Source: Leptotrichia sp. oral taxon 212
Lineage (GTDB): Bacteria; Fusobacteriota; Fusobacteriia; Fusobacteriales; Leptotrichiaceae
Length of the DNA: 64,000 nucleotides
NCBI RefSeq assembly: GCF_001274535.1
Contig: NZ_CP012410.1
Coordinates: forward strand, 186,001 to 250,000
Reading direction: 5' to 3'
Made by a program: the position numbers and the translations under genes. How positions within the stretch are numbered: position 1 is the first letter of the stretch; every line of letters starts with the position of its first letter. Below the pieces are notes generated by a model. The model did not search any database. It was not told where the DNA came from and saw only the letters and a program-made list of their open reading frames with translations. Shown here one piece after another: positions 47,564 to 62,307 of the stretch.

Positions 47564-48580
47564 ATGAAAAAAATATTTTTATTACTAACATTATTATGTA
47601 TTATAAATTTAAATGCTTTAACAATGAAAGAGAAAATTCAGCAGGATTTGTCAAAAATTGGGGTGAAGCAGGAAATTATTGATGAAACTGTGAAATTGGA
47701 TAAAAAATTTGCAGAAGGATTTGTAAAAGAGGATGATAAAGATGAGAAGGCAACTGAAAGTAAGGATGAATGGGAAAAACTTTATCAGAAAGATAAAAGA
47801 AATTATGTTGCCTTGGAAAGATTAATAGAATCATATTTTTTGACTGAAATATCAAATGATTCTCAGAAGAAAAAATATGTTTCAGAATATTTGAAAATGG
47901 ATATTCCTGAAGATAGAAAAAATTTTGTTTTGGGAAGGGACTTCTGGAATTATTCTGAAAACAAAGAGATAAAAAATGAGTATTTTGAAAAAGTTAAGAA
48001 AATTAGCGATAATCAGTATTATTTGAAAACAATAGATTTTTTTGAATATATATTAAAAGAAACGGAAAATATAAAAGAAAATGGGAATCCTAAGTTAATG
48101 AAACAGAAAATAGATGAAATTACACAAAAAATGGATGAAATTGATAAAATACTTGATAATAAAAATTTACTAGAAAAATATAGAATTTCTGATGAAGAAG
48201 CCTATTCTGCTCAATTAACTTTTTTTATGGTTGGCGGTATTCTAAAAGCGGTTACAGGTGATACTGAAGAAATGGTCAATGATTTTATAAAAAAAATTGC
48301 AAATAAGCAGATTTCTAAAGAAGTGGCTGAGTATAATCAAAATAAAGAAATAATTATTGATTTGTTAATTAAAGTGGTACTGGCTTTTAAAGAATTTTCT
48401 GGAGAGGTACCGAAAGAAAGAAAAAACTTTGAAAAACTTATGAAAAGACTGCAAGAAACTGAAATGTATAAAAGAATTACGGAAAATTCTGAAAATGATG
48501 AAGGTAATGCAAACTTTGAGTCTACGGAAGATAAGGAAAGCAATATTTATCATGAAGAAAAAAAGAAATATGATAAATAA
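47564..48580 (+). CDS. Exported Lys/Glu-rich protein of unknown function
   Basis: A 338-residue protein with a signal peptide (KIFLLLTLLCIINLNA). The mature part is strongly helical and charged, beginning MKEKIQQDLSKIGVKQEIID, with a hydrophobic patch around residues 215-235 (AQLTFFMVGGILKAVTG) and a hydrophilic C-terminal tail. I recognise no family. It shares a short 16-base junction with the DKNYY-repeat gene and a GGAG ribosome site, so the two are probably cotranscribed and may act together at the cell envelope. Confidence 0.65.
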   Translation: MKKIFLLLTLLCIINLNALTMKEKIQQDLSKIGVKQEIIDETVKLDKKFAEGFVKEDDKDEKATESKDEWEKLYQKDKRNYVALERLIESYFLTEISNDSQKKKYVSEYLKMDIPEDRKNFVLGRDFWNYSENKEIKNEYFEKVKKISDNQYYLKTIDFFEYILKETENIKENGNPKLMKQKIDEITQKMDEIDKILDNKNLLEKYRISDEEAYSAQLTFFMVGGILKAVTGDTEEMVNDFIKKIANKQISKEVAEYNQNKEIIIDLLIKVVLAFKEFSGEVPKERKNFEKLMKRLQETEMYKRITENSENDEGNANFESTEDKESNIYHEEKKKYDK

Positions 48581-48660: not shown

Positions 48661-50739
48661 ATGGCAACATATAATTTATTATTTAAAAATTTGGAAGAAT
48701 TAAAAATAAAAGGTGTCGGAAAAACAAATATAAGTAAATTTAATAAACTTGGGGTATTCACTTTACATGATTTACTCTATTTTTTCCCGAGGGCCTATGA
48801 AGACAGGACAAACAGTAAAAACATTGTAGATATTCTGCCAGATGAGTTTGTCGCTGTAAGGGGAGTTATTGTAAATGTCATAACTCAATATATAAAAGCA
48901 GGAAGGACAATGTTCAGGGCTATATTGAAGGATGATACAGGAATTATGGAATTAGTCTGGTTTAATAACAGATATATAAAGAGTTATATAAAAATAGGTG
49001 ATGACCTTCTTGTATATGGAAAGGTAAAAAAATCGGCAAAATTCCAGATGGTGAATCCTGAGTATAAAAGACTGGATGAAAATGGACTTATAAAGGGGAA
49101 AAGCGGCGAACAGATACTGCCCATTTATCCTTCAACAGCTTCATTAAGGCAGGAATCAATAAGGAAAATAATAAATGATGCACTGCTTGATTATGGATAT
49201 CTGCTGGAGGAAAATATTCCTGAGGAGCTGCTGAAGAGAGGAAATCTTCTTCCAAGAAAGGAAGCCATATTAAATGTCCATTTTCCTGAAAGTTTTGAAA
49301 AGAAGGAAGAGGCAAAGAGAAGATTTATGCTGGAGGAAATTCTTCTTCTGGAAATGGGGATACTCCAGAACAGGTTTGAAACAGACAAAGCAAATAACAA
49401 TATTTATGAAATAGAAGATAACAAAAAGCTTGTAAGTAAATTTATAGACAGCCTTGAATATGATCTTACAAAGGCACAGAAACGTGTAGTTGCAGAAATC
49501 TATAAAGAACTGAAGGCAGGAAAAATAGTAAACAGGCTTATACAGGGGGATGTAGGTTCAGGAAAAACAATAGTTTCGCTGATTATGCTGCTGTATATGG
49601 CAGAAAACAGTTATCAGGGAGTCATAATGGCACCTACGGAAATTCTTGCAACACAGCATTATCTTGGAATTGTGGATGAATTTATGAACCTTGATGTGAG
49701 GGTGGAGCTGCTGACTGGAAGTGTAAAAGGGAAAAAAAGGGAAAAACTTCTGGCAGAGATAGAAAATGGACTTGTGGATATTGTCATAGGAACACATGCC
49801 CTTATTGAAAATGATGTTATATTTAAAAATCTTGGATTAATTATAATAGATGAGCAGCACAGGTTTGGGGTAACACAGAGAAAGCTTCTCAGGGAAAAGG
49901 GAAGTCTTGCCAATCTTATTGTAATGAGTGCAACTCCGATTCCACGTTCGCTGGCACTTACAATATATGGAGATCTGGATGTTTCGATTATTGATGAACT
50001 GCCAGCTGGAAGAATGCCCATAAAGACAAAGTGGATTAAGGATGAAACTGAAAGACAGAAAATGTATAATTTCATTGCAAAAAAGATTAAGGAAGGCAGA
50101 CAGGCATATGTCGTTTCTCCGCTTATTGAAGAAAGTGAAACCTTAAATGTGAAGTCAGCTCAGGAAACGTTTGAAGAGTACAGTAAAATATTTCCTGACA
50201 GGAGAATAGGATTGATTCATGGAAAGCAGAATTATAAGGAGAAACAGGAAGTCATGAGAAAATTTAAAAACCATGAGTTTGATATACTGATTTCCACAAC
50301 AGTAATCGAGGTGGGAGTCAATGTTCCAAACGCTTCAATAATGGTAATACGTGATGCCCAGAGATTTGGTCTTTCATCCCTTCACCAGCTGCGTGGAAGA
50401 GTAGGGAGAGGTCAGTATCAGTCATACTGTTTTCTGGAGTCGGAAACTGATAATGAACTTTCTGCAAGACGTCTGGAAGTAATGGAAAAGACAACAGACG
50501 GATTTAAAATAGCCGAGGAAGATCTGAAATTGAGAAATTCAGGTGAAATAATGGGAACACGTCAGAGCGGAGTTTCAGACATGGTACTTACAGATATTGT
50601 TAAAAATGTAAAGGAAATAAAGTACATACGTGATTATGTAGTAAAATATCTTGAACAGAATAACGGAAAAATAAAAAATGAATATCTGAGACTTGATATA
50701 TATGAAAAGTTTCATAAAAAGGGAAAGATAGAAAACTAG
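48661..50739 (+). CDS. recG: ATP-dependent DNA helicase RecG
   Basis: A 692-residue branch-migrating helicase that remodels stalled forks and Holliday junctions. Residues about 55-150 form the OB wedge domain, Walker A is QGDVGSGKT near 293-301, the DExx box is DEQHRFG near 397, motif III is SATPIPRSLA and the C-terminal helicase domain has STTVIEVGVNVPNA and QLRGRVGRG. The N-terminal IKGVGKTNISKFNKLGV is a RecG-type helix-hairpin-helix. Length matches the family. No promoter was clearly identified apart from the palindrome upstream. Confidence 0.97.
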   Translation: MATYNLLFKNLEELKIKGVGKTNISKFNKLGVFTLHDLLYFFPRAYEDRTNSKNIVDILPDEFVAVRGVIVNVITQYIKAGRTMFRAILKDDTGIMELVWFNNRYIKSYIKIGDDLLVYGKVKKSAKFQMVNPEYKRLDENGLIKGKSGEQILPIYPSTASLRQESIRKIINDALLDYGYLLEENIPEELLKRGNLLPRKEAILNVHFPESFEKKEEAKRRFMLEEILLLEMGILQNRFETDKANNNIYEIEDNKKLVSKFIDSLEYDLTKAQKRVVAEIYKELKAGKIVNRLIQGDVGSGKTIVSLIMLLYMAENSYQGVIMAPTEILATQHYLGIVDEFMNLDVRVELLTGSVKGKKREKLLAEIENGLVDIVIGTHALIENDVIFKNLGLIIIDEQHRFGVTQRKLLREKGSLANLIVMSATPIPRSLALTIYGDLDVSIIDELPAGRMPIKTKWIKDETERQKMYNFIAKKIKEGRQAYVVSPLIEESETLNVKSAQETFEEYSKIFPDRRIGLIHGKQNYKEKQEVMRKFKNHEFDILISTTVIEVGVNVPNASIMVIRDAQRFGLSSLHQLRGRVGRGQYQSYCFLESETDNELSARRLEVMEKTTDGFKIAEEDLKLRNSGEIMGTRQSGVSDMVLTDIVKNVKEIKYIRDYVVKYLEQNNGKIKNEYLRLDIYEKFHKKGKIEN

Positions 50740-50824
50740 AAAATTATTTTAAAAACTGGTACTTTTAATAATTTCCACTGAAAAGATGAAATAATTTTTA
50801 TTTAAACGGAAAGGATTTTAATAG

Positions 50825-51736
50825 ATGAGAAAATTAGTAAAAAAATATTTAGCAGAATCAGGATTACTTTTGATAGGAATTCTCTGGGGACTAGGTTTTG
50901 TTTCTGTAAAGATTGGACTAAATGAAGGAATGAACAGGTTTTATCTTACAGGACTTAGATTTCTAGGGAGTTTTGTGTTATTGTCCATATTGTTCAGAAA
51001 AAAAATAAAGAAAATTTCACGGGATGATTTAAAGGCTGGCCTAGTATTAGGAATTATTCAATATTTTGGATATGTTTTCCAGACATATGGAGCGGAGCAT
51101 ACTACAGTAGGGAAGAATGCCTTTTTTACAGCAATTAATGTAATAATAGTGCCTTATGTATTTTGGATGCTAAATAAGAAAAGGCCTGATATATTTTCTT
51201 TTTCTGCTTCAATTATCTGTCTGATTGGAGTAGGAGTAATGAGTCTTGACACTAATTTAAATTTCACTCATCTTAATAAAGGAGATGTAACGACAATCAT
51301 ATCGGCGTTCTTTTTTGCACTGCAGGTAGGCTATACAGGATATTTTGGAAGAAAAGTTCATCCAATGAATCTGGTACTTTTACAGATGCTTGTTGGAGGT
51401 CTGATGTTTGCAGTGACACAGCTTGTAACTTCAGGAATAAGCGAAGTGACTCCGTTACATGGGAAAACTTTGATAGCAATGATTTACATAATAGTATTTT
51501 CCACAGCAATACCTATGCTGCTTCAGACATATTGTCAAAGATTGACAACTGCTACAAGGGCTTCTATACTGATGTCTACTGAATCAATGTTTGCACCTGT
51601 GTTTGCTTTTTTTATTTTAGGAGAGATGATGTCATTGCGTGTTGCGCTGGGAGCTGCTTTAATACTGTTTGCGGTAATTGTTTCTGAAACGAAGCTGGGA
51701 CTGGTAAAGGAAGAGGATTTAGAAACATTGAAATAA
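50825..51736 (+). CDS. EamA/DMT-family transporter
   Basis: A 303-residue inner-membrane protein with ten predicted helices in two EamA repeats. It starts with LLLIGILWGLGFVSVKIGLN, and the second repeat has ISAFFFALQVGYTGYFGRKV. RASILMSTESMFAPVFAFFILGE near residue 255 is characteristic of drug/metabolite exporters. The substrate cannot be deduced. The gene is 85 bases after recG and ends at a bidirectional terminator. Confidence 0.92.
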   Translation: MRKLVKKYLAESGLLLIGILWGLGFVSVKIGLNEGMNRFYLTGLRFLGSFVLLSILFRKKIKKISRDDLKAGLVLGIIQYFGYVFQTYGAEHTTVGKNAFFTAINVIIVPYVFWMLNKKRPDIFSFSASIICLIGVGVMSLDTNLNFTHLNKGDVTTIISAFFFALQVGYTGYFGRKVHPMNLVLLQMLVGGLMFAVTQLVTSGISEVTPLHGKTLIAMIYIIVFSTAIPMLLQTYCQRLTTATRASILMSTESMFAPVFAFFILGEMMSLRVALGAALILFAVIVSETKLGLVKEEDLETLK

Positions 51737-51743
51737 ATGTATA

Positions 51744-51805
51744 AAAAAGAACATGGTTCAGAAAACTTGTAAAATTTAAAAGTTTCTATAAATCATGTTC
51801 TTTTT
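51744..51805. terminator. Bidirectional terminator between EamA and the GHKL cassette
   Basis: Perfect 12-bp stem AAAAAGAACATG (51744-51755) with CATGTTCTTTTT (51794-51805). Confidence 0.85.
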
Positions 51806-51821
51806 ATTGAAAATAGATTTC

Positions 51822-52568
51822 TTAATCCATTGTCAGTAGAAGACTATCTATTTTTTCCGTAATTTTTTCCTTAAGTTCACTTTCTTCAAAATAATCAAGA
51901 AGATATGTCCCGCCTAAAATATTAAGGTATATGATAATTTCGTTAAACAGTTTAGTCTTTATATTTACTCCATTTTTTTCAAAATCATGGATTGCAGACA
52001 AAAAGGCTTTTGTAACAGTAGGACTGTTGCTGAAATTACTTGAAAAAAGATATAGAAGTTTTGTTCTGAAATCTGTTTTAAAAACATTAAGCAGTTCAAA
52101 CGGATCTGCACGTGTTCCATCATAAACAAGATGTCCTGTCCACCATAATCTTGCTAAAGGATGCATAATAAGAGATTTTCTTTTTCCGTGTGAAAAGAAA
52201 AAAGTATTTTTTATCAAATTTTCAGTTGCTTCTTTTTTATCAAAAGAATTTCTATATTTTACATAATCCCAGAAATCGCTATGTGCCATTCCTGCCCATA
52301 AATTTTCATTTGCTGCTTCCACAACTGATAAATGTTTCATAGAAGAATAAAGAATTCTTACATTCTCCAGATCAGTCTGCTCAGGTCTCTCAGAAGACGT
52401 ATCAAGATTAAATTGAGGGACATCCTTTTTAAACTCGAGAAAAGGGGAACTATCGTCAAAGAATTTAAAAATCCAGTCATTTGTAGTTGCTTTATAGTTT
52501 TCAAGATTAATTTCAATGTTTTTTCTCAATGTTTCAAGGGAAATTTCTTTTAAAAAATTCAGTATCAT
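51822..52568 (-). CDS. DUF6339-like protein, third gene of the GHKL cassette
   Basis: A 248-residue soluble protein. The segment VVEAANENLWAGMAHSDFWD, then FFFSHGKRKSLIMHPLARLW, then WTGHLVYDGTRADPFELLNV is the pattern I associate with the DUF6339 family. Members sit in operons with ATPases and are suspected, not shown, to act in defence. Its start overlaps the stop of the preceding gene by four bases (ATGA), so translation is coupled. No catalytic motif is obvious; conserved Trp, His and Arg residues cluster at 100-145. The family assignment is from memory and moderately certain. Confidence 0.65.
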   Translation of the reverse strand: MILNFLKEISLETLRKNIEINLENYKATTNDWIFKFFDDSSPFLEFKKDVPQFNLDTSSERPEQTDLENVRILYSSMKHLSVVEAANENLWAGMAHSDFWDYVKYRNSFDKKEATENLIKNTFFFSHGKRKSLIMHPLARLWWTGHLVYDGTRADPFELLNVFKTDFRTKLLYLFSSNFSNSPTVTKAFLSAIHDFEKNGVNIKTKLFNEIIIYLNILGGTYLLDYFEESELKEKITEKIDSLLLTMD

Positions 52569-53431
52569 CCTAGTTCCTCCTCACTCTGTTCGAGTTCCAT
52601 CATTGCATTGAAACTTCTGCTCACAGGGAAATTTATTATTTTCTGTGCAAGATCATAGGAAAATTCCCTTTCAAGTGTTTCTTTGTTCAGCTCAATATTC
52701 ATGTTGGAAAGAACTTTTTTAATTGTTTTAAACCAGCTGTATTCCTCAAAATTTTCCAGTTCGGAATTTTTCAGATTTTCAAAGACATAGATTAATGTCG
52801 GGAAAATAACGGAAGAATGAAGCAGTGGCTGAAAAACACCCCTTGATAAAATAGAATATTGCTCATATTCAGTTTTGTAAAGGGAAATTCCAATTCTGTC
52901 ATTCATCATGTCAATTTCCATTCCGCTTTTATTTTCAGAATTTTTTTTCAATATTAAAAATATTGAAGGCATCTGAACAAGATCATCTTTTTCCTTTTCA
53001 ATTTCAATATTGAAAGGCTTTGCAATTGCAAGAATGTTAGCTTTTTCAAGATTGAAAAGGATATCCTGATAATCGGCATTGAAATTTTTATTTGTATAGT
53101 TGTCAATCTGTGTTTTTGCTATAATGAAAAAACAGATATTTATCCTGTTGTTAAGTAAGGATTCGTGTATGGAAATATTTTCAAATCCAAGTTTTGATTT
53201 TACTATGGTTCTATAAGAAGTAGAAGGACATTCTATGTGAAATACAAATTCAGCATATTCCTCCTTTATAAGTTTTAATAATTTTTCATCATCAGTATTT
53301 GCAGTCAGGTGAAAAATTATTTCTTCACCTTTTCTTCCAACTTTCAGGTTTGAAGTGAAGGAAGAATTTACATAATCATCTGAAAAATAAGTAAGTACAG
53401 GGTAAGGATAAAGTCTATACTCTATATTCAT
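52565..53431 (-). CDS. Unrecognised protein, middle gene of the GHKL cassette
   Basis: A 288-residue soluble protein of no family I recognise. It starts IEYRLYPYPVLTYFSDDYVN, appears beta-rich in the first 120 residues and helical near the C-terminus, and ends in an acidic tail (ELEQSEEELG). I prefer ATG 53431, which follows GGAGGTGG, to ATG 53458. The start lies 17 bases inside the end of the GHKL ATPase gene, and the end overlaps the DUF6339-like gene by four bases. Obligate co-translation suggests it is a stoichiometric partner, perhaps an adaptor between the ATPase and the third protein. Confidence 0.7.
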   Translation of the reverse strand: MNIEYRLYPYPVLTYFSDDYVNSSFTSNLKVGRKGEEIIFHLTANTDDEKLLKLIKEEYAEFVFHIECPSTSYRTIVKSKLGFENISIHESLLNNRINICFFIIAKTQIDNYTNKNFNADYQDILFNLEKANILAIAKPFNIEIEKEKDDLVQMPSIFLILKKNSENKSGMEIDMMNDRIGISLYKTEYEQYSILSRGVFQPLLHSSVIFPTLIYVFENLKNSELENFEEYSWFKTIKKVLSNMNIELNKETLEREFSYDLAQKIINFPVSRSFNAMMELEQSEEELG

Positions 53432-55421
53432 ATAATTCCACCTCCATCGAACATTCATCAGAATAATTTAAAATAAAGGTCATAATAAATTTTTCATCTT
53501 TTTTCAAATTTTCAATGTATATTTTATCCTGATTCAGGAAAAGAGAATTATCAATAACATCGTCCTTATATGCATTTCTTATTTTTGACTTAAGATTATT
53601 CTGCTCACCTGAAAGGCTTATACGTACACAGGCTTTTTCAATATCTCTCTGAGGAGATATTACAAGTCTGTATTTTTTCAATTTTTTATTTAATATTATT
53701 AAACGCATACCGGCATCTTCAACACGTTTTATTTCATGTATCTCAGTAATATTACTGTCAGAATTCAGTAAAGAAAATTCATTTTTCAGATATTGTTCCT
53801 CTTCAGTTATATTTGATACATTTCCAAATACTGAATCAGCAACTTCCATAATTTCATCATTAAAATCATCTGTACTGTTTATTTTAGAATTGTTGAAATC
53901 CTCACTGCTTTTAGGTGTAGTTTTTACATTTCTCTTTTTAGGATTTTCACTAATCTGTTCAGCAAAAATTTTTCTAGTTTCATCGCTTATCTTGTCAATT
54001 TTATTATTTTCAATACTTGTATCAAGGAGAAGAAGATCATCCGGAAGGAATTTTCCTATTCCTTCAACATCCATGTGTTCATCCACATTACTTTTTCCAA
54101 GTTCTATAATTTTATTTATAATCAGCTGTTTCAGTTCTCTGAGAACATTTTTTGCATTTTTGTCAGGATGTCTGTCAGGCTCCCAACTGTCATGCTGAGG
54201 TGCTTCCATCTGCTTAAAGTAATTATTAAGATTATCTCCACTTAAAATAAAGATGGCAGAAAATCTAATATTTGACGGCAATCTATCCAAGTCAAATATT
54301 TTCATACCATTTGCACGTGAAATGAGAACTTTTCTGTTTAAGTTGTCGTATAAAATTTTCAGTTCAAAAGCTCCTAAATCCCTGAACGTATCTCCAAGGA
54401 AAAAACTGTTAGGATTTTCTGCAGGATTATCAGTGGATGTAAGGACCTGATAGTAGCTCCATATAGACTGATATTTTTTCTTTTCACTTATTTTAAAGCT
54501 TTCAATTATGTTTTTTAATGTATTTTCTGAAATTGTCATATTTCCGATTTTTACAATAAGATTTTTGTTGTAAATTGCAACAAGGAAATTATCCAGTATG
54601 GCTATAACAAGTTCTTCCTGCCACTTGCTGTCATTCAGGAATCCTGCTATATAAAGATCTGTTCCTGTAGTACCGTTTCTTCTGAATGAAGAATCAAGAT
54701 TAAGCTCTTCAAATAAAGGAGTATTTTTTTCAGTTTCTCCGTAATATCCTATTCCCTGTGTAAATCTTTCAGTATTTCCGACCTTCCATTTAGGAGGGCC
54801 TGACATTGAAATCTGATATCCCATTCCCTGTGTATTTTTATCATCTTCCAGCGGGAAGGAAATGAGCCTTGAAACACCTTGTGAAGCAAGAATTCCTTCA
54901 GTGTCATAACTTGTATAGAAGACAGTTCTTATATCTGAACACGCAAAAGGAGCAGATTTACCAATACCGTAACTTCCACCCATTGCACCCTGTTTATCAG
55001 AAATACCTGAAGATTTTATAAGGCTTTGCCATGGATTTACTGCATATGGCTCCTTTGAACCTGTAAGTCCAGTAGTATTGAAATCACTGATTCTTAAAAT
55101 ATCTATATTTTTGTCATTCATTCTGGCACATGCATTTTCAAAGAAAATTCTTGACTTCTGATCTGTTTCAAAATGAAGACATGTGTTTAAAGCTTCGCTT
55201 AATTTTGCATAACCCGGTATATTTTTTGTCTTTATCTGGAATTTAGAAAATTCCACAGTCACCGGGACTGAAGCATCAAGACGTGCATCCAGTGAATTTT
55301 GGCATACCTCCTTAGCCAAAGAAGAAAACAGAGTTCCTCTGTAAGTTTCAATTCCTGCTTCACTTATTCCATGTCTTTGGGAAAAGTTACTTTCAGGAAA
55401 ATTCCAATCTATATTGCTCAT
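53415..55421 (-). CDS. GHKL (HSP90/MutL/MORC-like) ATPase, first gene of a three-gene cassette
   Basis: A 668-residue protein with an N-terminal GHKL ATPase. The N-box is Glu38-x3-Asn42-x2-Asp45 (KEVCQNSLDAR), the G1 box is ISDFNTTGL (Asp113, Gly118) and the G2 box is GGSYGIGKSAPFA (148-160). Residues about 270-450 resemble the transducer region of such ATPases; residues 480-560 are acidic, Asn/Ser-rich and probably flexible; the C-terminal 100 residues look beta-rich. Similar ATPases occur in MORC/MutL-linked restriction and MZA-type defence loci, but no Z1 helicase, AIPR or methylase gene is here. It begins the operon with an unusual structured leader. Confidence 0.82.
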   Translation of the reverse strand: MSNIDWNFPESNFSQRHGISEAGIETYRGTLFSSLAKEVCQNSLDARLDASVPVTVEFSKFQIKTKNIPGYAKLSEALNTCLHFETDQKSRIFFENACARMNDKNIDILRISDFNTTGLTGSKEPYAVNPWQSLIKSSGISDKQGAMGGSYGIGKSAPFACSDIRTVFYTSYDTEGILASQGVSRLISFPLEDDKNTQGMGYQISMSGPPKWKVGNTERFTQGIGYYGETEKNTPLFEELNLDSSFRRNGTTGTDLYIAGFLNDSKWQEELVIAILDNFLVAIYNKNLIVKIGNMTISENTLKNIIESFKISEKKKYQSIWSYYQVLTSTDNPAENPNSFFLGDTFRDLGAFELKILYDNLNRKVLISRANGMKIFDLDRLPSNIRFSAIFILSGDNLNNYFKQMEAPQHDSWEPDRHPDKNAKNVLRELKQLIINKIIELGKSNVDEHMDVEGIGKFLPDDLLLLDTSIENNKIDKISDETRKIFAEQISENPKKRNVKTTPKSSEDFNNSKINSTDDFNDEIMEVADSVFGNVSNITEEEQYLKNEFSLLNSDSNITEIHEIKRVEDAGMRLIILNKKLKKYRLVISPQRDIEKACVRISLSGEQNNLKSKIRNAYKDDVIDNSLFLNQDKIYIENLKKDEKFIMTFILNYSDECSMEVELYEYRV

Positions 55422-55649: not shown

Positions 55650-57815
55650 TTGGAAATTTTAAGTAGTGTGGCAAAGGAATTAAATCTAAAATTGTCACAG
55701 GTTGAAAACACTGTAAGCCTCTTTGATGAAGGTGCTACAGTTCCATTTATAGCACGTTACAGAAAAGAAGTTACGGGAAATCTTGATGAAGAGCAGATAA
55801 GGGAAGTAATTGAAAAAGTTACATACTACAGAAATCTTGAAAAAAGAAAAGAAGAAGTTATAAGGCTTATAGAAGAACAGGGAAAACTTACTGAAGAGCT
55901 GAAAACAAGTATAACTAAGGCTTTAAAGCTGCAGGAAGTGGAAGACCTGTACTTGCCGTATAAGAAGAAAAAAAAGACAAAAGCCGATATTGCAAAGGAT
56001 CAGGGACTGGAACCCCTATCAATATTTGCATTATTGCCTAAAACAACGATGGATTCCTTAAAGGCTGAAGCGGAAAAATATATTACAGAAGAAGTTATTA
56101 CAGTGGAAGCTGCAATTGAAGGAGTACATTTAATTATTGCACAGAATATATCAGAAGACATAAAAGTAAGGGAATTTTTAAGGGAAAGAATTGCAAAATA
56201 TGGAATACTTACTTCAAAAGTAATTGAAAAGAATAAAGGCGAAGATGAAAAAGGTGTTTATCAGGATTATTATGAATATTCAGAAGCTATTGAAAAGGCG
56301 GCTTCAAATAGAATTCTGGCATTAAACAGAGGAGAAAAAGAAAAAATTCTGAAAGTTGATATAGAAATAGATGAAAAAACGGAAGAATTTATAATGAATT
56401 TTATACTCAAATCATTCGGAAATAAAAATTTGACGGATTTTTACAGGGAAATTATAAAAGATTCCCTTGACAGGCTTGCATATCCGTCAATAAAAAATGA
56501 AGTGAGAAATATATATACTGAAAAAGCTGAAGCGGAAGCAATAAATATATTTTCTGAAAATCTGGAAAAACTGCTGCTGCAACCTCCATTATCTAAAAAA
56601 ACTCTTATGGGTCTTGATCCGGGATACAGAACTGGATGTAAAATGGTTGTAATAAACAAGGACGGATTCTATGAAACAAATGATGTGCTTTATCTGGTTG
56701 AGGAAATGCATAACCAGAGACAGCTTGACGAAGCTAAGAAGAAAATATTGAACTATATTGATAAATACGGTGTTGATATAATAGCAATAGGAAACGGTAC
56801 TGCATCAAGGGAAACAGAAAGTTTTGTAGCAAAGATAATAAAAGAAGCAAAAAGACAGGTATCCTATCTGATAGTAAGTGAAGCGGGAGCATCGGTGTAT
56901 TCTGCATCAAAGCTTGCAATAGAAGAATTTCCTGAACTTGATGTTACTGCAAGAGGTGCGATTTCAATAGCTAGAAGAATACAGGATCCTATGGCTGAGC
57001 TAGTAAAAATAGATCCGAAGTCAATAGGAGTTGGAATGTACCAGCATGATGTAAATCAGAAAAAGTTGAATGAAACTCTGGAGCAGACAATAGAGCATGT
57101 GGTAAATAACGTGGGAGTGAATATCAATACTGCGTCATGGGCACTTCTGAGCTTTGTATCAGGAATTAAGAAAAATGTGGCTAAAAATCTTGTGGATTAT
57201 AGACATGAAAATGGGGACTTTAAAGACAGAAAACAGCTGAAGAAGGTAAAAGGTCTTGGGGATAAGGCGTTTGAGCAGATGGCAGGATTTGTAGTAGTGC
57301 CTGACAGTGAAAATCCTCTTGATAATACAATAATTCACCCTGAATCCTATCACGTTGCGGAAACAATATTGAAGGAAGCAGGATGTAAGGTTTCCGACCT
57401 GAAGGAAAATCTGGATGAAGTAAGACAGAAACTGAAAACAGTCAATCTGGAAAAAGTTATAAAGGAAAATGATTTTGGTCCTCAGACTGCAAAGGATGTA
57501 TATGAAGCGCTTCTGAAGGACAGAAGAGATCCAAGGGATGAATTTGAGAAGCCTTTATTGAGATCTGATATATTGAATATGGATGATCTTAAGGAAGGGA
57601 TGGTTTTGGAAGGTACAGTAAGAAATGTTGCGAAATTTGGGGTTTTCGTAGATATCGGACTGAAAAATGATGCATTGATTCATATATCTCAGATATCTGA
57701 TAAATTTGTATCAGATCCTACAAAAGTATTATCTGTAGGACAAATAATAAAAGTTAAAATCCTGTCGCTTGACAGGGAAAGAGGAAGAGTGGGGCTTACA
57801 AGAAAAGGTATTTAA
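55650..57815 (+). CDS. tex: Tex-family RNA-binding transcription accessory protein
   Basis: A 721-residue protein of full family length, implicated in transcription and RNA handling. Domains in order: N-terminal helical domain (VSLFDEGATVPFIARYRKEV), YqgF-like RNase fold (TLMGLDPGYRTGCKMVVINK), helix-hairpin-helix repeats (LKKVKGLGDKAFEQMAGF) and a C-terminal S1 domain (LEGTVRNVAKFGVFVDIGLK). The start is TTG at 55650, supported by GGAGGA seven bases upstream and by alignment of MEILSSVAKEL with other Tex N-termini. No ATG is close by. Confidence 0.96.
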   Translation: MEILSSVAKELNLKLSQVENTVSLFDEGATVPFIARYRKEVTGNLDEEQIREVIEKVTYYRNLEKRKEEVIRLIEEQGKLTEELKTSITKALKLQEVEDLYLPYKKKKKTKADIAKDQGLEPLSIFALLPKTTMDSLKAEAEKYITEEVITVEAAIEGVHLIIAQNISEDIKVREFLRERIAKYGILTSKVIEKNKGEDEKGVYQDYYEYSEAIEKAASNRILALNRGEKEKILKVDIEIDEKTEEFIMNFILKSFGNKNLTDFYREIIKDSLDRLAYPSIKNEVRNIYTEKAEAEAINIFSENLEKLLLQPPLSKKTLMGLDPGYRTGCKMVVINKDGFYETNDVLYLVEEMHNQRQLDEAKKKILNYIDKYGVDIIAIGNGTASRETESFVAKIIKEAKRQVSYLIVSEAGASVYSASKLAIEEFPELDVTARGAISIARRIQDPMAELVKIDPKSIGVGMYQHDVNQKKLNETLEQTIEHVVNNVGVNINTASWALLSFVSGIKKNVAKNLVDYRHENGDFKDRKQLKKVKGLGDKAFEQMAGFVVVPDSENPLDNTIIHPESYHVAETILKEAGCKVSDLKENLDEVRQKLKTVNLEKVIKENDFGPQTAKDVYEALLKDRRDPRDEFEKPLLRSDILNMDDLKEGMVLEGTVRNVAKFGVFVDIGLKNDALIHISQISDKFVSDPTKVLSVGQIIKVKILSLDRERGRVGLTRKGI

Positions 57816-57867
57816 TATCTGGTGTAGTTTAATTAAAATTATGAAATAGAGAAAGAAGGTAAAAGAG

Positions 57868-59442
57868 ATGAGTTTATTTTTAATCGGGCTTGTGCCCATA
57901 ATATTGTTTTTGGTTTTATTGGCAGGTCTTAAAAAATCTGCTATGTTCAGTGCGTATACAAGTTTGGTCACTGCGATTATCTTGACATTTATTGTTCCAG
58001 CGTGGAGAATGCCGGTACAGGGAATACTTGCTTCGATACTGGAAGGATTTGCAGTGGCATGGATGCCAATAGGATTTGTAGTTATTGCGGCGTTATTCGC
58101 GTATGATCTGTCAGTAAAAACAGGGAAAATAGAAACAGTTAAAAAAATGCTGGGAAATATAACAACAGATAAAAGAGCACAGGCATTGGTTCTGGCGTGG
58201 GGATTTGGAGGATTTATAGAAGGTATAGCAGGATATGGAACTGCAGTTGCAATTCCGGCGGCAATAATGGTGTCATTAGGATTTAATCCATTAAATGCGG
58301 CATTGATATGCCTTATAGCAAACTCAACACCTACGGCATTTGGTACGGTGGGACTGCCTGTTACTACAATGGTTTCAAAACTGGGGCTTGACAAGGCAGG
58401 AAACTTTACACCTCTATTTACTTCATTGTTATTGCTGCTGCTTACATGCCTGATTCCGTTTATTATCGTTCAAATGGCAAACAAGGAAATAGAAGGCGGG
58501 AAAAATCCTGCATTTGGAAAAGGAATAGTTCCGGTAATTATAGCTTCAATTTTGGGATATCTTATACAGCCTGCAATAGCAATTACAATGGGAGCAGAGC
58601 TGACAACAATATTATCAAGCTTGCTTGCAATGATATTAATGATAGTATCTATAAAAATGTTTGTTAAGAATGATGAAGGATTTGAAAAAGCCCATGTTAC
58701 AGGGCAGGAAGCATTTCTCGCATGGCTGCCTTATATTCTAATGATAGTGCTTATAGTAGGAACAAGTCCTGTTGTGGCGCATATACATGAAATGCTGGAA
58801 CCTACTACTACTAAATTTAACTTTGCCTTAGGAAATCAGGCAGCATGGTTTAAGGATGGAGGAGATCCGAGTGTAACATTTAAGTGGTTACTGGCTCCTG
58901 CGGCACCATTATTTTTAGCAACAGTAATTGCAGGATTTATACAGAGGGCTAAAATAAAGGACATGGGGGAAGTGTTATGGAATACGACAGTCCATAAAAT
59001 ACCTTCATTAACAGTAATCATGGGAATAGTTGCATTGTCTGTCGTTATGAAGCACAGTGGAATGATACAGAGCATAGCTGATGGTTTTGTAAACCTTACA
59101 GGAAAAGGATTCCCGCTGATTTCGCCATTCCTTGGAACAATAGGAACTTTTGTTACAGGAAGCGACCTGTCATCAAATCTGCTGTTTGGGGATCTTCAGC
59201 ATAGCGTTGCTGAAGGATTGAAACCTGGAAGTGATATGTTGAAATCATTGTTTATAGCTTCAAACACCGCAGGTGCAACTGGAGGAAAGATGATATCACC
59301 TCAGAATATTGCCATAGCGGCTTCTACTGTTGGACTTGTAGGACAGGAAGGGGATATGCTGAAATTTACTATTAAATATTCAGTGGTTTACGCAATAATT
59401 TTAGGTATACTTGTATTTGTCGGAAGTGGAATGATAGCTTAA
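57868..59442 (+). CDS. lctP: L-lactate permease, LctP family
   Basis: A 524-residue membrane permease with about thirteen hydrophobic segments. Family signatures include LVLAWGFGGFIEGIAGYGTA and LICLIANSTPTAFGTVGLPV, plus GTFVTGSDLSSNLLFGDLQ and SNTAGATGGKMISPQNIAIA near the C-terminus. It moves lactate or glycolate with protons; in a lactate-producing fermenter it may work mainly as an exporter or for cross-feeding. No lactate dehydrogenase gene is adjacent. It is preceded by an AGAAAGAAGG site 52 bases after tex. Confidence 0.95.
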   Translation: MSLFLIGLVPIILFLVLLAGLKKSAMFSAYTSLVTAIILTFIVPAWRMPVQGILASILEGFAVAWMPIGFVVIAALFAYDLSVKTGKIETVKKMLGNITTDKRAQALVLAWGFGGFIEGIAGYGTAVAIPAAIMVSLGFNPLNAALICLIANSTPTAFGTVGLPVTTMVSKLGLDKAGNFTPLFTSLLLLLLTCLIPFIIVQMANKEIEGGKNPAFGKGIVPVIIASILGYLIQPAIAITMGAELTTILSSLLAMILMIVSIKMFVKNDEGFEKAHVTGQEAFLAWLPYILMIVLIVGTSPVVAHIHEMLEPTTTKFNFALGNQAAWFKDGGDPSVTFKWLLAPAAPLFLATVIAGFIQRAKIKDMGEVLWNTTVHKIPSLTVIMGIVALSVVMKHSGMIQSIADGFVNLTGKGFPLISPFLGTIGTFVTGSDLSSNLLFGDLQHSVAEGLKPGSDMLKSLFIASNTAGATGGKMISPQNIAIAASTVGLVGQEGDMLKFTIKYSVVYAIILGILVFVGSGMIA

Positions 59443-59460
59443 TTATAAAAAAATGGTAAA

Positions 59461-59484
59461 ATAAGGGCGGCGATGAGCCCTTAT
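59461..59484 (+). other. Hairpin between lctP and ileS
   Basis: Perfect 8-bp stem ATAAGGGC (59461-59468) with GCCCTTAT (59477-59484) and an eight-base loop, without a following T-tract. It is not a T-box: no AGGGTGGNACCGCG motif is present. It could be a processing or stability element. Confidence 0.45.
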
Positions 59485-59511
59485 ATAAACAACAAAAAAA
59501 TTGGAGGAGAA

Positions 59512-62307
59512 ATGTCGGAAGAACAGAATGTTGAAAAGGTGGATTATGCCGGAACGCTAAATCTACCGAAAACAAGCTTTAAAATGAAAGCAAATCTGGC
59601 TCAGAAAGAGCCAATTACTTTAAGGGACTGGAATAAGGCAAATATCTATGAAAAATCTCTGAAAGAAGATAAAGGTTTTTTCATATTGCATGACGGACCG
59701 CCATATGCAAATGGTAATATTCATATAGGGCATGCCTTAAATAAGGTACTTAAGGATATAATTCTAAAATACAAGAGGCTAAGAGGCTATAATGCTCCAT
59801 ATATTCCCGGATGGGATACACATGGACTGCCGATAGAATGGAAAATCATGGAGGAACTTGGAGAAAAAGCAAAGACTATGTCTCCGCTTCAGATAAGACA
59901 GGAGTGTAAGAAATGCGCACTTAAATGGGTAGAAAAGCAGAAGGCTGAATTTATAAGATTAGGAGTTTTAGGAAACTGGGAAAATCCTTATATTACACTA
60001 AAACCTGAATATGAGGCAGAACAGCTGAAAGTATTCAAGGAAATATATGAAAATGGATATGTATATAAAGGACTGAAACCTGTATACTGGTCACCAACAA
60101 CAGAAACGGCACTTGCTGAAGCGGAAATTGAGTATAAAGATGTAGAATCCCATTCGATTTATGTAAAATTTGAAGGAAAACAGGATTTGTTGGATAAATT
60201 AGGAATAGATGAAGGAAGTATCCTGATATGGACAACTACACCATGGACATTGCCTGCGAATCTGGGAGTTTTTCTGCACCCTGAATTTGATTATGGTGTT
60301 TATAAGACAGAAAAAGGAAACCTGATTTTAGCAAAAAGTCTTGCTGAAACAGTATTTTCAACACTAGGATTATCCTATGAACTGCTTAAGGAATTCAAGG
60401 GAACAGAGCTTGAAAGAACTCATTACAGACATCCGTTTTTAGACAGGGATGGATTGGTAATGATAGGAGACTATGTAACCGCAGATGCAGGAACAGGAGC
60501 AGTACATTCTGCACCTGGACATGGGGTGGACGACTATAATTATGCGTTAAAATATAACATAGGAGTATTGTCTCCTGTTGATGATAAAGGACATATGACA
60601 AAGGAAGCAGGAAAATATGAGGGAATGTTTTATGCAAAGGCAAGTAATGTAATAGTGGAAGATCTTACAGAAAGCGGACATCTGCTTCACCACAGTAAAT
60701 TCACCCACTCATACCCTCACGACTGGAGAAGTAAAAAACCTGTAATTTTCAGGGCTACTGAACAGTGGTTCATAAGTGTTGATGAAAGTGATATCAGACA
60801 GAATGCGCTGGATGCATTGAAAGATGTGGAATTTGTTCCTGAATGGGGAAAAAACAGAATCAATGCAATGCTTGAAACAAGACCGGACTGGACTATTTCA
60901 AGACAGAGAGTATGGGGGGTGCCAATACCTATATTCTATAACAGGGAAACAAATGAAGTTATATATGAACCTGAAATAATGGATAAAGTTATTGAATTAG
61001 TAAAAAAAGAAGGAACAGATATATGGTGGAAATACGAAGCTGAAGAAATTATAGGAGAAGAACTGCTTGAAAAATACAATCTGAAAAATATTCCATTAAG
61101 AAAAGAAAGAAGTATTATGGACGTATGGTTTGACTCAGGGGTTTCACATAGAGGAGTTCTTGTGCCAAGGGAATTACCTAGACCGGCAGACCTTTATCTT
61201 GAAGGAAGTGACCAGCATAGAGGATGGTTCCAGTCATCACTGCTGACATCAATAGCAAGTACAAAGGACGCGCCATATAAAAGAATACTTACTCATGGAT
61301 TTGTAATGGACGGACAAGGTAGAAAAATGTCCAAGTCATTAGGGAACACAATACTTCCTAAAGATATTACTGAAAAATATGGAGCTGATATTTTAAGACT
61401 TTGGGTATCTTCAGTAGATTACAGGGAAGATGTAAGAATTTCTGAAAATATATTACAGCAGATGTCCGATGCATATAGAAGAATAAGAAATACAGCAAGA
61501 TTCCTCATGGGAAATTTAAGTGATTTCAACTATTCAGAAGACAAGGTTGAATACAGTGAAATGTTCGAAATAGACAGATGGGCAATGCATAAGCTTGAAG
61601 AACTGAAGGAAAAAACTACAAAATATTATGACAGATATGAATTTTACAGTTTATTCCAGGAAATAACGTATTTCTGCTCAATCGAAATGTCTTCCTTCTA
61701 TTTGGATATAGTAAAAGACAGACTTTACTGTGAAAATAAGAAGTCGCCTGAAAGAAGAAGTGCACAGACTGTACTTACAGAAGTATTAAGAGTACTTGTA
61801 AGGGTGATTTCTCCTGTGCTGTCATTTACGGCAGAAGAAATCTGGGAAAGAATACCTGAAAGCATAAAAGAGGAAGAAAGTGTTCATTTGAGTTCATGGA
61901 TTGAAGCAAATCCTGAATACAAAAACGAAGAACTTGCTAAAAAATGGGAAAAGATATATCATTTAAGAAAAGAAGTTAATAAAAAACTTGAAGCTGAAAG
62001 ACAGAATGGAATGATAGGGCACTCACTTGATGCAAGAGTTCTTCTTAATATATCAAATGGTGAATATGCATTCCTGAAAGAGTATACAGAAGCTGAAGTT
62101 TCTGATCTTTTCATTGTTTCACAGGTAAAATTTGTAAATGAAGGGCTGCAGGAAACTGAAATAGAAGCAATTACTATTGCTGTAGAAAAAGCATCTGGAG
62201 AAAAATGTGAAAGATGCTGGAAATATGATGAAGAAGTTGGACATGACCATGAACATAATGATGTATGTCCAAGATGTGCTAAAGTTCTTAATTCTTTGGA
62301 AAAATAA
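59512..62307 (+). CDS. ileS: Isoleucyl-tRNA synthetase
   Basis: A 931-residue class I aminoacyl-tRNA synthetase. The HIGH motif is in [16 protein letters not shown], the editing domain has [15 protein letters not shown] and [16 protein letters not shown], and the KMSKS loop is [10 protein letters not shown]. The C-terminal zinc finger ([24 protein letters not shown]) marks the bacterial mupirocin-sensitive type. I start it at ATG 59512, behind GGAGGAG, not at ATG 59473, which lies in a hairpin and overlaps the ribosome site. It is followed by lspA, a common bacterial pairing. Confidence 0.98.

What the first reader, a model, noticed from the sequence alone, without database searches (positions are those of the whole stretch)
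51822..55421. Uncharacterised GHKL ATPase cassette, candidate defence system
Three tightly overlapping genes (17- and 4-base overlaps) encode a GHKL ATPase with intact N, G1 and G2 boxes, an unrecognised protein and a DUF6339-like protein. GHKL ATPases of the MutL/MORC type are known in restriction and MZA-like systems, but the usual Z1, AIPR, nuclease and methylase partners are missing. The set is self-contained between housekeeping genes, as mobile defence cassettes often are, and has no close described counterpart I can name.
Basis: partly seen in the sequence, partly recalled or inferred. Interest (0 to 1): 0.7.

Follow-up and report, generated by a model that had tools for sequence, protein, structure and literature searches.

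The report
Known candidate defence cassette, PDC-M33
Three overlapping genes in an oral Leptotrichia-type bacterium form a mobile cassette that is already catalogued, without published experimental proof, as candidate anti-phage system PDC-M33; its ATPase carries the signature of a family described in 2008 (paraMORC2), and how it works is still unknown.

Summary
Genes at 55421-53415, 53431-52565 and 52568-51822 (minus strand) overlap by 17 and 4 bases and encode an ATPase with GHKL motifs, an unannotated protein and a DUF6339 protein. 'No close described counterpart' is wrong. All three match PADLOC's candidate system PDC-M33 end to end (E=2e-202, 2.7e-100, 1.8e-88), and the ATPase carries the ExxxH signature of paraMORC2 (Iyer et al. 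2008), invariant in 102/102 sequences.

The defence reading is well supported but was not tested. The trio is found in 9/98 Fusobacteriota genomes at different sites, at least 387 places in GTDB genomes, plasmids and prophage-like contigs. Its order and strand are kept in all 89 loci that contain all three genes. The methylase, Vsr, Z1 and AIPR partners missing here do flank relatives: a C5-methylase lies within 6 kb in 45/100 loci, and one locus has the trio between Zorya and MZA genes.

Structure prediction gives a beta-sandwich plus helices for the middle protein and an all-helical fold without relatives for DUF6339; no nuclease was recognised in either.

Best model: an ATP-gated DNA clamp with two accessory subunits, R-M-linked. 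New member of a known, uncharacterised kind.

The parts
53415..55421 (-). Gene A, 668 aa: GHKL-motif ATPase, PDC-M33A, paraMORC2-type (N box E38/N42/D45, G1 D113xNTxG118, G2 G149xxGxGK155, GT at 253-254, R369, E406xxxH410)
   Evidence: (PDC-M33A E=2e-202); signature from PMC2292703
52565..53431 (-). Gene B, 288 aa: PDC-M33B; predicted N-terminal Ig/FN3-like beta-sandwich (about 1-145), a further beta part and a helical C-terminus; conserved H65xEC68xxTxxR74; no recognised catalytic site. An in-frame ATG at 53458 would add 9 aa.
   Evidence: E=2.7e-100; pLDDT 92.4, pTM 0.58
51822..52568 (-). Gene C, 248 aa: DUF6339, PDC-M33C; predicted all-helical single domain without a match in PDB
   Evidence: PF19866 E=1.5e-53; E=1.8e-88; pLDDT 95.7, pTM 0.91
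53415..53431 (-). 17-base A/B overlap, found exactly in 49 of 89 other complete trios
52565..52568 (-). 4-base B/C overlap (ATGA type), found exactly in 27 of 89 other complete trios
51737..51821 (.). Intergenic gap between the convergent EamA gene and gene C holding a hairpin with T-rich flank, probably a terminator for both sides
   Evidence: sequence; fold of 51730-51825 minus strand z=-4.9

Best explanation
This is a chromosomal copy of PDC-M33, a three-gene accessory cassette of the epigenetic, R-M-linked defence world. Proposed working: protein A dimerises on binding ATP through its GHKL domain and closes as a clamp on DNA, as MutL and MORC do; B (beta-sandwich plus helices) and C (all-helical) bind A as fixed-partner recognition and effector subunits; the closed complex blocks or compacts invading DNA, or recruits a nuclease encoded elsewhere, where DNA lacks or carries the wrong methylation. 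Shown: the trio, its gene order, the ATPase motifs, mobility, and enrichment next to C5-methylases and defence genes. Inferred: defence function, ATP-gated clamping, complex formation, methylation dependence. Unknown: the effector step; no nuclease was recognised in B or C.
For: End-to-end PADLOC matches of all three proteins, and 62/62 sampled A proteins match PDC-M33A. A, B and C lie in the same order on one strand in all 89 loci holding all three; the other loci are short contigs or stretches that end within or soon after the cassette, or divergent forms. C5-methylases within 6 kb in 45 of 100 loci; in 31 loci with long flanks they concentrate 0-6 kb downstream and are nearly absent further out. 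Vsr in 10, Z1 in 6, a second GHKL (MzaB) in 3. Paenibacillus L102: ZorABCD, then C5-methylase, trio, C5-methylase, MzaB, MzaC. Lactococcus conjugative plasmid: trio beside annotated abiGI/abiGII. R-M genes beside it on Ligilactobacillus, Priestia, Planococcus and Paenarthrobacter plasmids. Sporadic: 9/98 Fusobacteriota genomes, different sites within the family, prophage-like contigs. paraMORC families were placed in R-M systems by Iyer et al. 2008 (PMC2292703).
Against: No phage experiment was found: PDC-M33 and DUF6339 occur in no held paper, and PADLOC's PDC systems are described as mostly unvalidated (PMC12988326). This copy has no methylase or nuclease beside it, and 42 of 100 loci have none of the R-M-type genes I modelled within 6 kb. 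A's GHKL fold rests on motifs; profile methods did not confirm it. Clamp and complex formation are by analogy.
Confidence: 0.66

Rival explanations
1. The trio is an accessory of C5-cytosine methylases, repairing T:G mismatches from deaminated 5-methylcytosine (a MutL-like helper of Vsr) rather than a defence system.
For: C5-methylases within 6 kb in 45/100 loci and Vsr in 10/100; MutL works with Vsr in E. coli, as reviewed in PMC2292703; own genome holds three C5-methylases elsewhere.
Against: Vsr is absent from 90% of loci; over half of loci have no methylase nearby; plasmid and prophage carriage and linkage to Zorya, MZA and abiG fit defence better.
Confidence: 0.1
2. The trio is a selfish stability or abortive module: C or B is a toxin held in check by A and released when the neighbouring R-M or defence system fails or is inhibited.
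For: Mobile carriage; three obligately linked overlapping genes; clustering with complete R-M systems of varied type.
Against: No known toxin fold or motif in B or C; the HEPN-like R-x6-H in C is not conserved and is lost in this copy (N89); a large obligate ATPase is unusual for toxin-antitoxin pairs.
Confidence: 0.15
3. A housekeeping function of the lineage, unrelated to conflict.
For: Flanked by housekeeping genes here; carried by all three held genomes of one neighbouring genus.
Against: 5 of 33 family genomes, 9 of 98 phylum genomes, different chromosomal sites, plasmids and prophage-like contigs.
Confidence: 0.04

Closest known systems
PADLOC PDC-M33 (PDC-M33A, PDC-M33B, PDC-M33C)
   Same: All three proteins match over nearly full length, same order.
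   Different: Nothing in the trio itself. This copy lacks the neighbouring C5-methylase and the 77-aa gene common in other members.
paraMORC2 family of GHKL ATPases (Iyer, Abhiman, Aravind 2008, PMC2292703)
   Same: GHKL motifs, ExxxH motif invariant after the GHKL region, sporadic distribution mostly in Gram-positive bacteria, R-M neighbourhoods.
   Different: The text and figure legends I read name no fixed B and DUF6339 partners; the figure itself and its gene lists could not be read, so identity rests on signature and description.
MZA system (MutL, Z1, AIPR and others)
   Same: GHKL ATPase with C5-methylase and Z1 surroundings in some loci (L102, L105); an AIPR gene beside a divergent trio (L017).
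   Different: The trio's A is not MzaB; Z1, AIPR and the MzaD-type protein are absent here, and where both occur they are separate adjacent sets.
VcSduA, a Shedu protein with an N-terminal GHKL ATPase (PMC12137116)
   Same: GHKL ATPase in an experimentally shown phage-defence protein.
   Different: VcSduA carries its own PD-(D/E)xK nuclease (DUF4263); none was found in this trio.
HEF_HK / Response_reg_2 pairs (PMC8011034)
   Same: paraMORC-related ATPases beside C5-methylases and Vsr.
   Different: Neither Pfam domain is present in this trio.

Membership tests
PADLOC PDC-M33 | A protein matching PDC-M33A | tested here: met
   E=2e-202
PADLOC PDC-M33 | Adjacent proteins matching PDC-M33B and PDC-M33C | tested here: met
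   E=2.7e-100 and 1.8e-88, overlapping genes
PADLOC PDC-M33 | Anti-phage activity | not testable with these tools
   No experiment found in held literature
paraMORC2 | GHKL ATP-binding motifs in order | tested here: met
   N box, G1, G2 and GT motif conserved in 96-102 of 102 sequences; G1 is DxN, not DxG
[quoted passage not shown]
   E406 and H410 invariant 102/102; motif defined in PMC2292703. Its placement in an S5 domain is inferred from position.
paraMORC2 | Bergerat GHKL fold plus S5 fold | tested here: inconclusive
paraMORC2 | R-M gene neighbourhoods | tested here: met
   Met in relatives (45/100 with C5-methylase within 6 kb), not at this copy
MORC proper | GhXhhpXXRhl motif in the S5 domain | not tested
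   Stated absent from paraMORCs by PMC2292703; not scanned here
MZA | Z1, AIPR and other Mza partners in the operon | tested here: not met
   Neighbours at 48661-51736 and 55650-62307 are recG, transporters, tex and a tRNA synthetase by sequence
Shedu type I-D (VcSduA-like) | DUF4263 PD-(D/E)xK domain | tested here: not met
   No Pfam hit to it in A, B or C

The most novel reading that the evidence does not exclude
PDC-M33 is a nuclease-free defence system: a prokaryotic MORC-like ATP-gated clamp that, with a beta-sandwich partner and a new all-helical protein, topologically traps and silences invading DNA according to its cytosine methylation, a bacterial parallel to eukaryotic MORC transposon silencing.
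Probability: 0.15. Interest if true: 0.75.

Novelty: new member of a known kind. Interest (0 to 1): 0.3.

Why it matters
The find itself is a further copy of a catalogued candidate. It matters because the family is large (at least 387 places among about 85,000 species genomes), its three genes are inseparable, its partners have no recognised catalytic site, and it sits beside C5-methylases far more often than in more distant flanks. It is therefore a good test of whether bacterial MORC relatives defend by clamping or silencing DNA rather than by cutting it.

Tried and rejected
Close-relative scan of GTDB with protein A alone: no hits; the alignment worked. NCBIfam: no hits. PDB by sequence: nothing meaningful for A, B or C. 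PDB by fold: C none below E 1, B only generic beta-sandwich matches at E about 2e-3 with low TM-scores; viral fold library for C: nothing. GHKL confirmation by hhalign against MutL and a MORC-like set failed while the MutL versus MORC-like control worked (96.9%). HEPN RNase reading of C (R89-x6-H) rejected: the H is not conserved and this copy has N89. Empty-site comparison: EamA and tex are not neighbours in relatives, so there is no clean empty site; the cassette lies at a junction between a recG-EamA block and a tex-transporter block. Promoter scan not above shuffles in a useful way. One malformed family search, one script with a syntax error.

Full report
Observation. B has an upstream in-frame ATG (53458); the start at 53431 is the one shared with homologues, and the 17-base overlap recurs exactly in 49 of 89 complete trios elsewhere. 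The intergenic gap between the convergent EamA gene and C folds into a strong hairpin, so the cassette looks like its own transcription unit.

Identity. PADLOC-DB names all three: PDC-M33A (E=2e-202), PDC-M33B (2.7e-100) and PDC-M33C (1.8e-88). Pfam knows only C (DUF6339, 1.5e-53). PADLOC's PDC systems are candidates found by 'guilt by embedding' and are mostly unvalidated (PMC12988326; called unpublished candidates in PMC11811056). No held paper mentions PDC-M33 or DUF6339. So the cassette is catalogued but, as far as could be found, not studied.

The ATPase. In 102 sequences E38, Q41, D45, D113, T116, G118, G149, G152, G154, R369, M373, E406 and H410 are invariant and N42 is N in 101. This is the ordered N, G1, G2 set of GHKL ATPases, with DxN instead of DxG in G1. 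E406xxxH410 is the feature Iyer et al. [quoted passage not shown] Caution: no profile search recovered a GHKL domain, so the fold is argued from motifs only.

B and C. AlphaFold2 with 64 sequences gives B an N-terminal Ig/FN3-like beta-sandwich followed by a further beta part and helices (pLDDT 92.4, pTM 0.58). C, with 52 sequences, is all-helical, very confident (pLDDT 95.7, pTM 0.91) and without a PDB match. B has a conserved H65xEC68xxTxxR74 stretch; C has invariant N69, W91, R106 and W143. Neither resembles a known nuclease. This copy of C departs from the family at N89 (R in 48/52).

Distribution. One copy in its own genome. In the family 5 of 33 genomes and in the phylum 9 of 98 carry A. 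Sites differ: in this genome between recG-EamA and tex; in a neighbouring genus elsewhere beside a glycerol-kinase-like gene; in the relative G015 elsewhere again. recG-EamA and tex-transporter blocks are separate in the relatives checked. That contradicts a syntenic housekeeping role. At least 387 places in GTDB species genomes encode relatives, in Bacillota mostly, also Herbaspirillum, Fibrobacter, Treponema and others; 26 plasmid records and 7 IMG/VR contigs, one with tail, holin, endolysin and integrase genes beside the trio.

The unit. Of 103 loci with A, 89 have A, B and C on one strand in that order. The rest are short contigs or stretches in which the contig or record ends within or soon after the cassette, or divergent forms whose third gene has the right size but no significant C match.

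Neighbourhood. Of 100 loci, 45 have a C5-cytosine methylase within 6 kb, 44 a small (~77 aa) gene, nearly always just upstream, 16 a ~1000-aa protein with RNA-polymerase-alpha-CTD-like and sigma-region-4-like matches, 10 Vsr, 6 Z1 (domains). In 31 loci with long flanks the methylase counts in 2-kb bins downstream are 9, 4, 4, then 1, so the association is local. These counts treat related loci as independent, so they are descriptive. Paenibacillus L102 has ZorA, B, C, D, then C5-methylase, trio, C5-methylase, MzaB, MzaC; L105 adds MzaD. Divergent Fusobacteriota copies lie beside ZorA/ZorB-like genes (for L034; L035 by similarity of its neighbour). On a conjugative Lactococcus plasmid the trio adjoins genes annotated abiGI/abiGII.

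Mechanism. The most economical model is an ATP-gated DNA clamp with two obligate partners that acts on DNA according to its methylation. MORC proteins trap and compact DNA (stated for C. elegans MORC-1 in the abstract of PMC8277788), and MutL-type clamps activate separate nucleases (PMC2292703). Whether PDC-M33 silences, recruits a nuclease or kills the cell is open. Rivals: methylation-linked repair, a stability or abortive toxin module, housekeeping.

Verdict. Real, correctly described, correctly suspected to be defence, but already catalogued: a new member of a known and uncharacterised kind. Interest 0.3; the family as a whole deserves more.

Noticed in passing
L054:3661-5223, L070:12799-14343, L048:12725-13747, L052:3363-4382: DUF6339 proteins with C-terminal extensions: about 260 extra residues of unknown type in L054 and L070, an HTH-like tail in L048 and L052 (by eye). 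Such fusions could hint at the function of C.
   Followed up: partly
L113:4049-4282 and 43 other loci: A small (~77 aa) gene of unknown function lies directly upstream of A in most of 44 of 100 loci; it is absent in this window.
   Followed up: partly
L095:6816-9815 and 15 other loci: A ~1000-aa protein with RNA polymerase alpha-CTD-like and sigma-70 region-4-like matches lies next to the trio; possible further partner.
   Followed up: partly
L034:7826-11391, L035:7976-9946, L017:5899-9449: Divergent trio with an unrecognisable third protein of the same size, beside ZorA/ZorB-like genes (Fusobacteriota) or an AIPR gene (Enterococcus plasmid): probably a second subtype.
   Followed up: partly
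Listeria and Enterococcus plasmids, e.g. NC_022045.1 61099-61610: Many plasmids hold a DUF6339 gene split into two annotated pieces without a match to A or B: apparent remnants of the cassette.
   Followed up: no
L069, L072, L074, L078: A proteins 97-99% identical in MAGs labelled Bacillota, Bacteroidales, Clostridiales and Spirochaetales: very recent transfer or binning contamination.
   Followed up: no
L061:9998-11935: Gene A appears broken into two ORFs in an Epulopiscium single-cell assembly while B and C are intact.
   Followed up: no
window 47564-48580: A 338-aa predicted exported protein upstream of recG has relatives (37-39% identical) close to the trio in two genomes of a neighbouring genus (L028:6109-7107, L029:4347-5366); may be coincidence.
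   Followed up: no
L032:421-8430: Fusobacteriota locus with ATPase plus TOPRIM-like protein, type IIG-like enzyme and PDC-M30 genes directly before the trio: a dense defence island.
   Followed up: partly
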